Positions 5,767-10,730 of a stretch of DNA of 64,000 nt are shown one piece after another (the stretch's first letter is position 1; every line of letters starts with the position of its first letter). Location of the stretch: contig NZ_JABBJE010000001.1 of the NCBI RefSeq assembly GCF_014218725.1, positions 248,001 to 312,000 of the forward strand, read 5' to 3'. Source of the DNA: Brevundimonas huaxiensis (GTDB taxonomy: Bacteria > Pseudomonadota > Alphaproteobacteria > Caulobacterales > Caulobacteraceae). A model generated the notes under the pieces. The model did not search any database, was not told where the DNA came from, and saw only the letters and a list, made by a program, of their open reading frames with translations. The position numbers and the translations under genes are program-made.

Positions 5767-7218
5767 ATGCCGCTGCACATCCACGACACCCTGCGCCGTG
5801 AAAAGCGCCTGTTCGAGCCCCGGAACAAGGATCGTGTGACCCTCTATGTCTGCGGCCCCACGGTCTATGACTACGCCCACATCGGCAATGCGCGCCCGCC
5901 GGTGGTGTTCGACGTCCTTGTGCGGCTGCTGCGCCGGACCTATGGCGCGGACAAGGTCCTCTACGCCCGCAACGTCACCGACGTGGACGACAAGATCAAT
6001 CAGAAGGCCGCGCGCGAAGGCGTGCCGATCGGCGAGGTCACGGCCCGCTATGAAGCCGCCTATCTCGCCGACATGGGCCTGCTGAACGTCTCGCCGCCCG
6101 ATATCGCGCCCCACGTCACCGACTACATCCCGGCCATCGTCGATCAGATCCAGGCCATCGTCGACGCCGGCTGCGCCTATGCGGCCGAGGGGCACGTCCT
6201 GTTCGACGTCTCGTCCTACAAGGCCTACGGCGCCCTGTCGGGTCGGAACCTGGACGACATGATTGCCGGCGCCCGCGTCGAGGTCGCGCCCTACAAGAAG
6301 AACCCGCACGACTTCGTGCTGTGGAAGCCGTCCAAGGCGGACGAGCCGTCCTGGCCGTCGCCGTGGGGCGAGGGGCGTCCTGGCTGGCACATCGAATGCT
6401 CGGCCATGATCGAAAAGACCCTCGGCCTGCCCATCGACATTCACGGCGGTGGCATCGACCTGGTCTTCCCCCACCATGAGAACGAGATCGCCCAGGGCGT
6501 CTGCGCCCACGGCCATGCGCATGGCGATCAGGCCCATGACGAATACGCCCGCTACTGGATGCACAACGGCTTTCTGACCGTGGACGCCGAGAAGATGTCC
6601 AAGTCGATCGGCAACGTCCTGCTGCTGCACGATCTGGTGCAGGCCATGCCGGGCGAGGTCGTCCGCTGGGCGCTGCTGTCGGCCCACTATCGGCAGCCGC
6701 TGGACTGGAACCAGGGGCTGTTGGATCAGAGCCGCAAGAACCTGGACCGGCTGTATGGCGTGCTGCGCGACGCCGACGCGGCCCTGGCCGACTTCGATGA
6801 GGCGACGCTCGACGAGGCCGAGAGGGAACTGGCCGAGAACGCCCTGAATCCGGTGCTGGACGCGCTTGAAGACGATCTCAATACGCCGGGCGCGATCGCC
6901 CAGCTGTTCGGGCTCGGCAACACCCTGCGCGAACTGCTGAACGACGCCGAGGCCGATATCAACGATGTCGCCATGGCCCGCTGGAGCCTGAAGGAAGCGG
7001 CCGGTCTGCTCGGCGTTCTGTCGCTGACGCCGGACGCCTGGTTCGAGGGCGGCGATCCCGCCCTGAAGGCCGAGGTCGAGGCCCTGCTGGACCAACGCGC
7101 CGCCGCCCGCGCCGCCAAGGACTGGTCCGAGGCCGACCGCATCCGCGACCGCCTGAACGCCCTGAACGTCGTCGTCATGGACGGCCCCGAAGGCGCCACC
7201 TGGCGCGTGAAAGGGTAA
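5767..7218 (+). CDS. cysS: Cysteinyl-tRNA synthetase
   Basis: A 483-residue class I synthetase that charges tRNA-Cys. The N-terminus has the zinc-site YVCGPTVYD (Cys29) and the HIGH-equivalent HIGN at 38-41. The GWHIECSAMIEKTLG and FPHHENEIAQ segments follow and hold the other zinc ligands. KMSKSIGN lies at about 276-283. The C-terminal anticodon-binding region ends normally. It is slightly longer than the E. coli enzyme, with an insertion around LWKPSKADEPSWPSPWGEGRPG as seen in other alphaproteobacteria. An unusual tRNA-Cys gene lies about 2.2 kb downstream. Confidence 0.97.
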   Translation: MPLHIHDTLRREKRLFEPRNKDRVTLYVCGPTVYDYAHIGNARPPVVFDVLVRLLRRTYGADKVLYARNVTDVDDKINQKAAREGVPIGEVTARYEAAYLADMGLLNVSPPDIAPHVTDYIPAIVDQIQAIVDAGCAYAAEGHVLFDVSSYKAYGALSGRNLDDMIAGARVEVAPYKKNPHDFVLWKPSKADEPSWPSPWGEGRPGWHIECSAMIEKTLGLPIDIHGGGIDLVFPHHENEIAQGVCAHGHAHGDQAHDEYARYWMHNGFLTVDAEKMSKSIGNVLLLHDLVQAMPGEVVRWALLSAHYRQPLDWNQGLLDQSRKNLDRLYGVLRDADAALADFDEATLDEAERELAENALNPVLDALEDDLNTPGAIAQLFGLGNTLRELLNDAEADINDVAMARWSLKEAAGLLGVLSLTPDAWFEGGDPALKAEVEALLDQRAAARAAKDWSEADRIRDRLNALNVVVMDGPEGATWRVKG

Positions 7219-7948: not shown

Positions 7949-9232
7949 TCAGTTCGTCCGGCGGATCAGTTCGTCCGCCAGCGCCGGCGTCAGATAGCCG
8001 TCGGCGATCCGGTTGTTGGCGATCTGCCAGCGACGCAGGGCCGCGCGGGTGTTGGAGCCGATCACCCCGTCGACGCCCTGGGTGTCGTAACCCAGTTGGG
8101 TCAGGGCGCGCTGCGCCCCGACACGCTGGTCGCGCGTCATCGACGGATCGTTGGGCCAGGCCTTCGTCAGCCCCGGCTTGCCCATGACCCCGTCCGCCGT
8201 CAAGCCGATGGCCAGGGCGTAGGAGACCGAGTTGTTGTAGCGGCGGATCACATAGTGGTTCGGCAGGGCCAGGAAGGCCGGACCGTTCGCGCCCTGGGGC
8301 AGCAGGATGGTCGCTTCTTCCAGCGCCTCGGCGCCGTTCGGGGCGCCGCCTTGCGCCAGGCGCACGCCCTTGGCCGCCCAATAGGCCCAGTTGTGCTTCG
8401 GGCCTTCCGCCTCGGCATAGTCGAAGCCGGAGGGCAGGGTAACTTCATAGCCCCAGCCCTGACCGCGCTTCCACCCGGCCTGGGCCAGCAGGTTGGCGGC
8501 CGACGCCAGGGCGTCGGCGTCGTCGTTCCAGATGTCGACCTTGCCGTCGCCGTCCTGATCCACGCCCAGGCGCAGATAGTTGTCGGGCATGAACTGGGTC
8601 TGGCCCATGGCCCCGGCCCAGCTGCCCTTCAGGCCCGCGCGCTCGCGCCGGCCGTCCACGACGATGTCCAGCGCGTCCTTCAGCTGCCCCTCGGCCCAAT
8701 CGCGTCTGCGGCCGTCATAGGCCAGGGTCGCCAGCGAGCGGATCACGTCATAGTCGCCCTGCACCTGACCGAAGGCGCTCTCCTGGGCCCAGACGCCGAC
8801 CAGGATCTCGCTGGGCACGCCGAATCGTTGAACCACCGACCACGGCACCCGGTCGATGCGCTGTTTGGCCTGGGCGATTCGCACGGGGGTCACCGCATTC
8901 TGCACATAGGCGCCGGCGGGTTTGGAGAATTCAGGCTGGTTGCGATCCAGGCGGATCACCGTCGGATCGGGCGTCAGCCCCTCCAGTTCCCGGGCGTAGT
9001 CCGCGCGGCGGGCGCCGCCCTTACGCGCCAGGAAACCCTGCTTCCAGCCTTCGAAACCCTGCTGGTCATAGGCGGCCAACGGCGGCGTCTGGGGGGTAGG
9101 GGTCGGCGTCGTGACCGGCGCGCCCGCCTGGGGCTGAGGCTGGGGCGTCGGCAGGTTCACCTGCGGCTCGGGCAGCATGGGCGCGCAGGCCGAGACGCAG
9201 CCGATCAGGAGAAGGCGGTAGGAAAAGCGCAT
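7949..9232 (-). CDS. Lytic murein transglycosylase B-type lipoprotein with peptidoglycan-binding domain
   Basis: A 427-residue envelope lipoprotein that should cleave peptidoglycan glycan strands to give anhydro-muropeptides. The start at 9232 gives a lipoprotein signal (MRFSYRLLLIGCVSAC, lipobox VSAC). A Pro/Thr/Gln-rich tether follows to about residue 50. The SLT_2 (MltB-like) catalytic domain then shows the expected Glu in GVWAQESAFG, with GAMGQTQFMPDNYL and a Ca-site-like DQDGDGKVDIWND. The C-terminal ~60 residues (MTRDQRVGAQRALTQLGYD...GVDGVIGSNTRAALRRWQ) form a PG_binding_1 domain. An upstream in-frame start would add 35 basic residues before the signal and is unlikely. Confidence 0.92.
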   Translation of the reverse strand: MRFSYRLLLIGCVSACAPMLPEPQVNLPTPQPQPQAGAPVTTPTPTPQTPPLAAYDQQGFEGWKQGFLARKGGARRADYARELEGLTPDPTVIRLDRNQPEFSKPAGAYVQNAVTPVRIAQAKQRIDRVPWSVVQRFGVPSEILVGVWAQESAFGQVQGDYDVIRSLATLAYDGRRRDWAEGQLKDALDIVVDGRRERAGLKGSWAGAMGQTQFMPDNYLRLGVDQDGDGKVDIWNDDADALASAANLLAQAGWKRGQGWGYEVTLPSGFDYAEAEGPKHNWAYWAAKGVRLAQGGAPNGAEALEEATILLPQGANGPAFLALPNHYVIRRYNNSVSYALAIGLTADGVMGKPGLTKAWPNDPSMTRDQRVGAQRALTQLGYDTQGVDGVIGSNTRAALRRWQIANNRIADGYLTPALADELIRRTN

Positions 9233-9363
9233 GAGATTCAAACTAAAGCCCCCGGGGTCAGACACGAAATGACATCCGCGCGAACGGCCATTTCGACGCC
9301 CTAAAGCGCGCGCGGCGCGAATGCGTTGCCTGGCCATTCCCCGCTCGGGTGTAAGGCGCGCCG

Positions 9364-9393
9364 TTAACCACCTTTGTATTGGACGCCTTATAA
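9364..9393 (+). promoter_or_regulatory. Candidate promoter of tRNA-Cys
   Basis: TTAACC (9364-9369) and TTATAA (9388-9393) are spaced by 18 bases. The -10-like box ends 31 bases before the tRNA, which fits a short leader. The -35 box is a poor match. Confidence 0.4.
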
Positions 9394-9424: not shown

Positions 9425-9501
9425 GGCCTGATGGCGGAGCGGCGACGCGGCGGGCGTGCAACCCCGTAAACCCTCCGTTCGACTCGGAGGTCAGGCCTCC
9501 A
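9425..9501 (+). tRNA. tRNA-Cys (GCA) of unusual structure
   Basis: A 77-base tRNA ending in encoded CCA. Acceptor stem GGCCTGA pairs fully with TCAGGCC; the discriminator is U, the CysRS identity base. The D arm is the three-pair type usual for tRNA-Cys (GCG/CGC, nine-base loop). The anticodon stem is GCGGG/CCCGT, but the loop is eight bases (CGTGCAAC), not seven, with U33-GCA-A37 intact and one extra base on the 5' side. The variable region is AAAC. The T arm is CCTCCG-TTCGACT-CGGAGG, six pairs rather than five. All stems are intact, so decay is unlikely. It is followed by a terminator and is monocistronic. Confidence 0.85.
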
Positions 9502-9512
9502 TAGTTTTCTAA

Positions 9513-9546
9513 GCGTGCTATCGCCCTTCGGGCTACTTGAGCACGC
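9513..9546 (+). terminator. Hairpin after tRNA-Cys
   Basis: A seven-base outer stem, GCGTGCT/AGCACGC, encloses a small inner stem GCCC-TTC-GGGC. A T-rich stretch precedes it, but no strong T run follows, so it may act as a processing or stability hairpin instead of a strict terminator. Confidence 0.5.
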
Positions 9547-9704: not shown

Positions 9705-9830
9705 ATGAAGGTCCGTAGCTCGCTCAAGTCGCTGAAGACCCGCCACCGCGACTGCAAGGTCGTGCGTCGCAAGGGCGTCGTCTTCGTCATCAACAAGACC
9801 GACCCGCGCTTCAAGGCGAAGCAGGGCTAA
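9705..9830 (+). CDS. rpmJ: 50S ribosomal protein L36, zinc-free type
   Basis: A 41-residue bL36 protein of the large ribosomal subunit, beginning [16 protein letters not shown] and ending [12 protein letters not shown]. It has a single Cys (Cys17) and lacks the four-ligand zinc ribbon of type-A L36, so it belongs to the zinc-independent (YkgO-like) type usual in alphaproteobacteria. In-frame codons reach back to 9537, but the short protein with its own promoter 66 bases upstream is clearly the gene. A strong terminator follows at 9929. Confidence 0.96.
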
Positions 9831-10313: not shown

Positions 10314-10730
10314 TTGAAGCGCACCCCCTTCAAGCCAGGAGGCGGGCTGTCGCGATCAGGCGGCCCGAAGCGCGATGGCGCATCCAGTCTGCGCTCAAGC
10401 AGCCCAAAGGGCGGTAGCGCTGCAAAAAAGCCCGCGCCCAGCCCCTTCGAGATGCAGCGCGAGGCGGCGAAACGCGCTGCATTGAATGCCTTGAAACGCG
10501 CTCGGCGCGCGGCGGACAAGGCGGGCGTTTCGCTGTCCGAATGGGAGGGCGAGTTCATCGATTCGGTCAGCGAGCGCGTGAAAACCCACGGCCGCGCCTT
10601 CGCCGACCCCGAAAAGGGCGCGCCGGGCCAGGCGCTCTCGGCGATGCAGGGCCGCAAGCTGAAAGAGATCACCGCCAAGGCCAATGGCGAAGAGCCGAAA
10701 CGGCGGTGGGGCAGGAAGCCTTCGGGGTGA
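10314..10730 (+). CDS. Hypothetical basic protein downstream of gapR
   Basis: A 138-residue protein that I do not recognise. It starts at a TTG only 12 bases after the gapR stop, so it is probably cotranscribed. The N-terminal ~45 residues are low-complexity, rich in Lys, Arg, Ser, Gly and Pro. The rest is predicted helical (REAAKRAALNALKRARRAADKAGVSLSEWEGEFIDS...) and ends in a basic tail (EPKRRWGRKPSG). Strong positive charge and position next to a nucleoid protein hint at nucleic-acid binding, but that is inference. The start codon is uncertain. Confidence 0.55.
   Translation: MKRTPFKPGGGLSRSGGPKRDGASSLRSSSPKGGSAAKKPAPSPFEMQREAAKRAALNALKRARRAADKAGVSLSEWEGEFIDSVSERVKTHGRAFADPEKGAPGQALSAMQGRKLKEITAKANGEEPKRRWGRKPSG

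What the first reader, a model, noticed from the sequence alone, without database searches (positions are those of the whole stretch)
9425..9501. tRNA-Cys with an eight-base anticodon loop and a six-pair T stem
All stems are fully paired: acceptor 7, D 3, anticodon 5 (one G-U) and T 6. U73, U33, GCA, A37 and the encoded CCA are kept. Against the common 74-base tRNA-Cys, this gene has one extra base in the anticodon loop (CGTGCAAC) and one extra base pair in the T arm, giving 13 pairs in the acceptor/T stack. Intact pairing argues against a pseudogene. Eight-base anticodon loops are known from frameshift-suppressor tRNAs, and a 13-pair stack is known from tRNA-Sec. If this is the only tRNA-Cys, CysRS and the ribosome here tolerate the shape; if not, it may have a recoding or regulatory role.
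Basis: partly seen in the sequence, partly recalled or inferred. Interest (0 to 1): 0.7.

Follow-up and report, generated by a model that had tools for sequence, protein, structure and literature searches.

The report
Second, oddly shaped cysteine tRNA
Most Brevundimonas genomes examined carry, beside a normal cysteine tRNA, a second conserved one that keeps the marks for being loaded with cysteine but has lost several features ribosomes expect, so it may carry cysteine to some job other than ordinary protein making.

Summary
In detail: window 9425-9501 (+) encodes a 77-nt tRNA-Cys with an 8-base anticodon loop and a 13-pair acceptor/T stack. It is not the only tRNA-Cys (an ordinary 74-nt one and one CysRS are present) and not a pseudogene. 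It belongs to a genus-restricted paralogue family: 89 of 112 Brevundimonas genomes, 0 of 184 other Caulobacterales, 0 of 209 Alphaproteobacteria outside the order. It mostly sits between a lytic transglycosylase gene and rpmJ; carrier-less genomes have these genes without it. In most relatives the anticodon arm is a covarying 6-bp stem with a SIX-base loop; the window's 8-base loop is that arm with its closing pair broken, so the frameshift-suppressor analogy is weak. All 70 distinct sequences read keep GCA, U73 and a 6-bp T stem. Decoding features drift: no 7-base loop in 66 of 70, U33 replaced in 15, A37 in 8; the ordinary tRNA-Cys shows the reverse pattern. Best reading (inferred, about 0.45): a tRNA kept for charging by CysRS but withdrawn from ordinary decoding, most likely a dedicated cysteine donor. 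No partner enzyme was found; expression and charging are untested.

The parts
9425..9501 (+). 77-nt variant tRNA-Cys gene with encoded CCA
9425..9431 (+). acceptor stem 5' strand, pairs with 9491-9497; same letters as the ordinary tRNA-Cys of this genome
   Evidence: pair 7:67 (alignment columns 7 and 68) changes on both sides in relatives
9434..9448 (+). D arm: stem 9434-9436/9446-9448, loop 9437-9445
   Evidence: its 3 pairs are invariant in 27 distinct sequences
9450..9467 (+). anticodon arm, 18 nt: 5 bp + 8-base loop here (C31.C38 unpaired); 6 bp + 6-base loop in most relatives
9458..9460 (+). anticodon GCA, kept in 70 of 70 distinct sequences read
9472..9490 (+). T arm: 6-bp stem CCUCCG/CGGAGG, 7-base loop; 13-pair stack with the acceptor
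9498..9498 (+). discriminator U73 (a major cysteine identity element)
   Evidence: identity role from PMC9976931 (passage)
7949..9337 (-). conserved upstream neighbour: lytic murein transglycosylase (SLT_2 + PG_binding_1)
9705..9830 (+). conserved downstream neighbour: rpmJ (ribosomal protein L36)
5767..7218 (+). cysS, the only CysRS found in the genome; near the tRNA here, but found in only 12 of 31 loci with at least 4.5 kb upstream

Best explanation
A paralogue of tRNA-Cys, most simply gained near the base of Brevundimonas, that selection keeps as a substrate of the single CysRS (GCA, U73, acceptor stem; charging is inferred, not assayed) but no longer as an ordinary decoder. Its 13-pair acceptor/T helix should weaken EF-Tu binding, as the longer acceptor stem does in bacterial tRNA-Sec (analogy), and its 6- or 8-base anticodon loop, with U33 and A37 free to change, should read UGU/UGC poorly. 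The likeliest use is as a dedicated carrier: Cys-tRNA handed to an enzyme outside the ribosome that reads the nearly invariant 13-pair helix, comparable with the non-proteinogenic tRNA-Gly of Staphylococcus aureus. Shown: anatomy, conservation, covariation, restriction to the genus in the samples searched, an ordinary tRNA-Cys and one CysRS beside it. Inferred: charging with cysteine, escape from EF-Tu and from decoding, and the existence of a reader.
For: 157 loci gave 70 distinct sequences: GCA 70/70, U73 70/70, 6-bp T stem 70/70, fully paired 7-bp acceptor 69/70; U33 replaced in 15/70 (13 C, 2 A), at least 5 changes on the tree of the neighbouring gene (65 rows); A37 to U in 8/70. In the 80 loci found by blastn or covariance model, where GCA and the T arm were not demanded: 60 distinct, GCA 60/60, T stem 60/60, U33 replaced in 12/60. 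Ordinary tRNA-Cys of the same genus (29 sequences, 10 distinct): loop always YUGCAAA while its T stem takes four forms, the opposite pattern. Anticodon stem: 5 of 6 pairs change on both sides. 89 of 112 genus genomes, mostly at one locus. PMC9976931: U73 and GCA are the major cysteine identity elements (passage). PMC7609411: EF-Tu binds Ser-tRNA-Sec 100-fold more weakly than Ser-tRNA-Ser, laid to its longer acceptor stem (passage). PMC4052509: S. aureus tRNA-Gly isoacceptors with features of weak EF-Tu binding could serve cell-wall synthesis (passage).
Against: No reader found: no PF04738, PF14028 (lantibiotic dehydratase domains) or PF16715 (CDPS) in 45 genus genomes, searches whose controls were silent too; no SelB over cut-off; no second CysRS over cut-off; nothing I recognised as an aminoacyl-tRNA transferase in 18 neighbourhoods, judged from translated starts only. 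Missing from 23 of 112 genus genomes and probably lost several times, so dispensable. U33 is kept in 55 and A37 in 62 of 70, the window's clade included. No expression or charging data. Rfam's tRNA model does not report it. GCA would also be kept if it decoded.
Confidence: 0.45

Rival explanations
1. A second, weak but ordinary decoder of UGU/UGC: the ribosome tolerates the shape and it adds to the Cys-tRNA supply, perhaps under some condition.
For: GCA 70 of 70, U33 in 55 and A37 in 62 of 70; CCA and U8 kept, T loop nearly so. PMC7609411 says the majority of non-canonical tRNAs it reviews work in translation, and tells of allo-tRNAs with 12-pair acceptor domains used in E. coli (passages).
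Against: A 6-base loop in most, U33 replaced at least 5 times on the tree, position 38 absent in the 6-base form, and an ordinary tRNA-Cys already present.
Confidence: 0.22
2. A CysRS ligand or sensor RNA (decoy or regulator): it binds CysRS through GCA and U73 and tunes or reports Cys-tRNA formation, without donating cysteine.
For: Keeps the two major cysteine identity elements and drifts elsewhere in the loop; one CysRS over cut-off per genome in 45 of 45. In 30 CysRS the best column separates carriers from non-carriers by 0.72, above the shuffled-label maximum (mean 0.44, 95% 0.58).
Against: The strict T stem is not explained by CysRS recognition. No CysRS column separates the groups fully, and kinship alone could give the excess over shuffles.
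Confidence: 0.13
3. A recoding tRNA (four-base or two-base decoding, frameshift suppression).
For: ARAGORN labels it a four-base (tgca) anticodon here and a two-base (gc) one in 23 of 30 loci.
Against: Those labels follow from loop size. Loops of 6, 7 and 8 bases occur in the genus. I did not search for slippery sites or frame-broken genes, so nothing supports it either.
Confidence: 0.06
4. A dying duplicate kept by chance.
For: Lost in several lineages; one copy has a mismatched acceptor pair (L220).
Against: 98.1% of pair cells paired and 41 two-sided changes over the whole structure against 11.9 in shuffles (related sequences can exceed shuffles, and one of the five measures, further pair types, did not stand out: 94 of 500). 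L225 has one acceptor pair exchanged as a pair. T stem nearly invariant while the neighbouring transglycosylase falls to about 70% identity.
Confidence: 0.07
5. An RNA that switches between cloverleaf and another fold: the D-arm strand CGGAGGG can pair with the T-arm strand CCCUCCG, competing with the T stem.
For: All 7 positions pair in 41 of 64 distinct 77-nt sequences and 6 of 7 in the other 23; the predicted minimum energy is on average 3 kcal/mol below the cloverleaf.
Against: Predictions ignore tertiary contacts and modifications, and the ordinary tRNA-Cys is misfolded by the program too; the strands hardly vary, so no covariation supports it.
Confidence: 0.05

Closest known systems
Ordinary bacterial tRNA-Cys (74 nt, 7/5), e.g. 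the other copy in this genome
   Same: Acceptor-stem letters, D-arm shape, GCA, U73, CCA.
   Different: 18-nt instead of 17-nt anticodon arm, 6-bp instead of 5-bp T stem, no 7-base loop in most, U33 not fixed in the family.
Bacterial tRNA-Sec (8/5)
   Same: 13-pair acceptor/T stack.
   Different: 4-nt variable loop instead of a long arm, GCA instead of the usual UCA, U73; no SelB over cut-off in 45 genus genomes.
selC* tRNA-Cys (8/4; Mukai et al. 2017 as told in PMC7609411, passages)
   Same: A tRNA-Cys paralogue with altered stems; lengthened anticodon stem.
   Different: 13 and not 12 pairs, no bulge in the T stem, 4-nt variable loop, no SelB or second CysRS over cut-off in 45 genomes, 6-base loop; selC* is told of from anaerobes.
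Non-proteinogenic tRNA-Gly isoacceptors of Staphylococcus aureus (PMC4052509, passages)
   Same: Extra isoacceptors that could escape EF-Tu for a non-ribosomal use (a works-like comparison only).
   Different: Those change T-stem pairs and G18G19; here the GG of the D loop is kept in nearly all and helix length and anticodon loop change. No partner enzyme known here.
+1 frameshift suppressor tRNAs (e.g. SufB2, extra base in the anticodon loop; abstract of PMC7803779 in the listing)
   Same: The window's loop has 8 bases.
   Different: Relatives mostly have 6-base loops; the extra base belongs to a stem pair, not to a conserved loop insertion.

Membership tests
tRNA-Cys | GCA anticodon and U73 | tested here: met
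   GCA and U73 in 70 of 70 distinct sequences, and in 60 of 60 from the 80 loci found by blastn or covariance model, all of which were read
tRNA-Cys | Canonical 7/5 cloverleaf with 7-base anticodon loop | tested here: not met
   13-pair stack; 8-base loop in the window, 6-base in most
tRNA-Cys | Charged with cysteine by CysRS | not testable with these tools
   Needs an aminoacylation assay
tRNA-Cys | Reported by the Rfam tRNA model RF00005 | tested here: not met
   No match; absent from the 44 hits
tRNA-Sec | 13-pair acceptor/T stack | tested here: met
tRNA-Sec | Long variable arm; SelB in the genome | tested here: not met
   4-nt variable loop; SelB over cut-off in 0 of 45 genus genomes, in 2 of 14 controls
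selC* tRNA-Cys | 8/4 stems with a bulged T stem; selB* or cysS* in some hosts | tested here: not met
+1 frameshift suppressor tRNA | Conserved extra base in the anticodon loop | tested here: not met
   Bases 31 and 38 pair in 50 of 64 distinct 77-nt sequences
+1 frameshift suppressor tRNA | Shifts frame in vivo | not testable with these tools
   Needs reporters
tRNA pseudogene | Decaying stems | tested here: not met
   Covariation; 69 of 70 acceptors and 70 of 70 T stems fully paired
Non-proteinogenic (extra-ribosomal) tRNA | Weak EF-Tu binding and use by a transferase | not testable with these tools
   Helix length suggests it; no transferase identified (with silent controls)

The most novel reading that the evidence does not exclude
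A genus-specific carrier tRNA: a Cys-tRNA line split off from translation, recognised by an unknown Brevundimonas enzyme through a 13-pair helix, in which the anticodon survives only as the handle for CysRS.
Probability: 0.35. Interest if true: 0.85.

Novelty: new variant of a known kind. Interest (0 to 1): 0.62.

Why it matters
It looks like a natural experiment that separates the two jobs of an anticodon: being read by the synthetase (kept) and being read by the ribosome (relaxed). If confirmed it would give a bacterial cysteine carrier outside ordinary decoding and a handle to find a new Cys-tRNA-dependent enzyme. Since Rfam's tRNA model misses it and ARAGORN leaves it unnamed, similar tRNAs may be overlooked elsewhere.

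Tried and rejected
Frameshift-suppressor reading: rejected as a description of the family because most relatives have a 6-base loop. tRNA-Sec/SelB system: no SelB over cut-off in 45 genomes. Second CysRS: one match over cut-off per genome in 45 of 45, all other matches below it. Mobile element: no match in viral contigs (pattern), plasmids or phages (blastn). Operon with a partner: the tRNA sits between a transglycosylase gene and rpmJ; second copies sit elsewhere, beside what I took from recall of the translated starts to be a primosome-like gene, a DUF2141-like gene and a carotenoid-oxygenase-like gene, with no family search; cysS was found in only 12 of 31 loci with room. PF14028, PF04738 and PF16715 gave nothing in 45 genomes, but their 14 control genomes were silent too, so absence is not shown; PF14028 was a wrong choice for PEARLs (by recall) and PF04738 was run afterwards. 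CysRS column comparison in 30 genomes: best column 0.72 against a shuffled 95% of 0.58, none complete, confounded by kinship: undecided. Promoter scan: no sigma-70 match; a promoter-like pattern in relatives was seen by eye only. Paper searches: one for 6-base anticodon loops listed a single paper, on tRNA-guanine transglycosylase; searches with Brevundimonas plus tRNA terms listed none that I recognised as describing this tRNA. Mukai et al. 2017 is not held, so selC* and allo-tRNA facts come from passages of PMC7609411.

Mended counts: a first tally of position 33 misread L170; one search replaces it. Searches missed L225 (pattern too tight), so they give 69 distinct sequences; one search reads all 157 loci and gives 70. 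By length one search counts four arms of 17 nt; one (L221) has a shorter D loop and an 18-nt arm when read by hand.

Full report
What is there. Window 9425-9501 (+) encodes a 77-nt tRNA with acceptor 7, D 3, anticodon 5 and T 6 pairs, GCA, U73 and CCA. ARAGORN places it exactly but cannot name it. The Rfam tRNA model, which finds 44 other tRNAs in this genome, does not report it. The genome also has an ordinary 74-nt tRNA-Cys, G000:C1:382553-382626, with the same acceptor stem, and one CysRS gene over cut-off, which lies in the window at 5767-7218.

Distribution. A blastn search of 41 genus genomes and a covariance model from 27 distinct relatives (R1) find the odd tRNA only in Brevundimonas. 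Among 112 genus genomes at least 90% complete, 89 have a match above 80 bits (93.9 or more in 88, 83.3 in one), 7 of them two such matches; the other 23 have nothing above 70.5 bits, the level of ordinary tRNA-Cys (counted by hand from the listing, which is ordered by E-value and cut only below that level). All 89 carriers have a further match, as an ordinary copy would give, but not every ordinary copy was listed or read. In the order sample 8 of 16 Brevundimonas and 0 of 184 others have it (best other 73.5 bits). In the class sample 0 of 209 genomes from outside the order have it (best 73.2 bits). The genus name rests on a pattern scan of named genomes: 77 loci, titled Brevundimonas, Caulobacteraceae, Caulobacterales or Alphaproteobacteria, plus a MAG called only 'bacterium' (L135) and one labelled Bordetella (L154), whose neighbouring gene groups with Brevundimonas. 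That pattern demanded GCA, U73 and most of the T arm, so the conservation of these is judged also on the 80 loci found by blastn or by the model. No match in viral contigs, plasmids or phages. The window's exact tRNA is also that of B. vesicularis (L182, L183).

Locus. The tRNA mostly lies between a divergent lytic transglycosylase gene and rpmJ: of the 77 pattern-found loci, the transglycosylase gene is found in 59 of 62 with at least 1.5 kb upstream and rpmJ in 59 of 65 with at least 1.2 kb downstream. Fourteen genus genomes without it were searched for the transglycosylase: 12 had it, 10 of these 12 loci also held rpmJ, and ARAGORN found no tRNA in any. On a tree of 76 distinct transglycosylase proteins (65 with the tRNA, 11 without; 24 of 125 loci dropped because the protein was short or missing, the rest of the reduction being identical rows) presence needs at least 6 changes, and the two deepest rows under midpoint rooting, both on long branches that the program flags, lack it. 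Most simply: one early gain and about five losses.

Shape across the genus. 157 loci gave 70 distinct sequences, some genomes being present in two collections. The T stem has 6 pairs in 70 of 70 and the acceptor is fully paired in 69 of 70 (L220 has one mismatch). In 64 distinct 77-nt sequences, anticodon-stem pairs 27-42 to 30-39 are paired in all, 26-43 in 55, and 31-38, which closes a 6-base loop, in 50; the other 14 have C.C, C.A or G.A there. On 27 distinct sequences 5 of the 6 anticodon-stem pairs change on both sides. Over the whole structure there are 41 two-sided cells (33 in the anticodon stem, 8 at one acceptor pair) against 11.9 in shuffles, 0 of 500 as high; of the five measures only 'further pair types' does not stand out (94 of 500); and shuffles do not remove relatedness. 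Rows with an open 31.38 pair are nearly all in the window's subclade (19 of 20 rows on the tree, the other being L146), giving the 8-base loop there.

Two kinds of constraint. Kept: GCA, U73, the acceptor and T stems. Relaxed: the ordinary 5-bp/7-base arm remains in 3 of 70 (a fourth, 78 nt long, has 6 bp and 7 bases), U33 is replaced in 15 of 70 (13 C, 2 A; at least 5 changes on the tree), A37 is U in 8 of 70. In the 80 loci found without demanding GCA or the T arm (60 distinct) the figures are GCA 60/60, T stem 60/60, U33 replaced 12/60. In 29 ordinary tRNA-Cys of the genus (10 distinct) the anticodon loop is always YUGCAAA, while the T stem takes four forms. So the paralogue protects what CysRS reads (PMC9976931, passage) and the long helix, and lets go of what the ribosome reads. 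That U33 matters for the U-turn, and A36-A37-A38 for the modification of A37, is recall; one search was a search listing only.

How it may work. A 13-pair acceptor/T helix is the shape of bacterial tRNA-Sec, whose longer acceptor stem is held to lower EF-Tu binding 100-fold (PMC7609411, passage). With an anticodon loop of unusual size this suggests a tRNA that can be charged but rarely decodes: a dedicated cysteine carrier, or a CysRS ligand. S. aureus non-proteinogenic tRNA-Gly is the nearest functional parallel (PMC4052509, passage). I found no reader: in 45 genus genomes (22 without the tRNA, G275 being left out of the 23, and 23 of the 89 with it) SelB is not over its cut-off, and PF04738, PF14028 and PF16715 gave no match, with silent controls. 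These steps remain inference.

Results against. The gene is dispensable (23 of 112 lack it); most members, the window's clade included, keep U33 and A37; no expression data exist here; folding predictions favour other folds by 3 kcal/mol on average, although they misfold the ordinary tRNA-Cys too. The same review that gives the EF-Tu figure says that the majority of non-canonical tRNAs it covers do work in translation.

Literature. The searches list no paper that I recognised as describing this tRNA. Of papers I saw the outline and passages of PMC8762117 and passages of PMC7609411, PMC9976931 and PMC4052509, the rest as listings only. Most subscription papers, and Mukai et al. 2017, are not held, so novelty is provisional.

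Noticed in passing
window 9517-9542 (+) and 10393-10418 (-): Palindromic repeat unit GCTATCGCCCTTCGGGCTACTTGAGC just after the tRNA, second copy with 3 mismatches; related units, seen by eye, follow the tRNA in one to four copies in relatives such as L055, L057, L086, like a REP-type element.
   Followed up: partly
window 9486-9510: The tRNA's own 3' end can form a terminator-like hairpin (GGAGG...CCUCC) followed by a T run (0.6 expected in shuffles); T runs directly after CCA occur in the window's subclade but not in all relatives.
   Followed up: no
window about 9362-9371: A GTTAACC motif about 60 nt upstream of the tRNA recurs in many relatives (by eye); it resembles a CtrA half-site (recall) and may belong to either divergent gene.
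   Followed up: no
window 9472-9490: The nearly invariant T-stem strands read CCUCC and GGAGG, the anti-Shine-Dalgarno and Shine-Dalgarno cores; possibly coincidence.
   Followed up: no
L082-L084, L194, L196, L202, L149, L175: A second, unlinked copy of the variant tRNA with loops UUGCAA, AUGCAA or CUGCAA in the B. mediterranea/intermedia group, outside the transglycosylase-rpmJ locus.
   Followed up: partly
L154: A MAG labelled Bordetella carries the tRNA and a transglycosylase that groups inside Brevundimonas: probably a mis-binned or mislabelled contig.
   Followed up: partly
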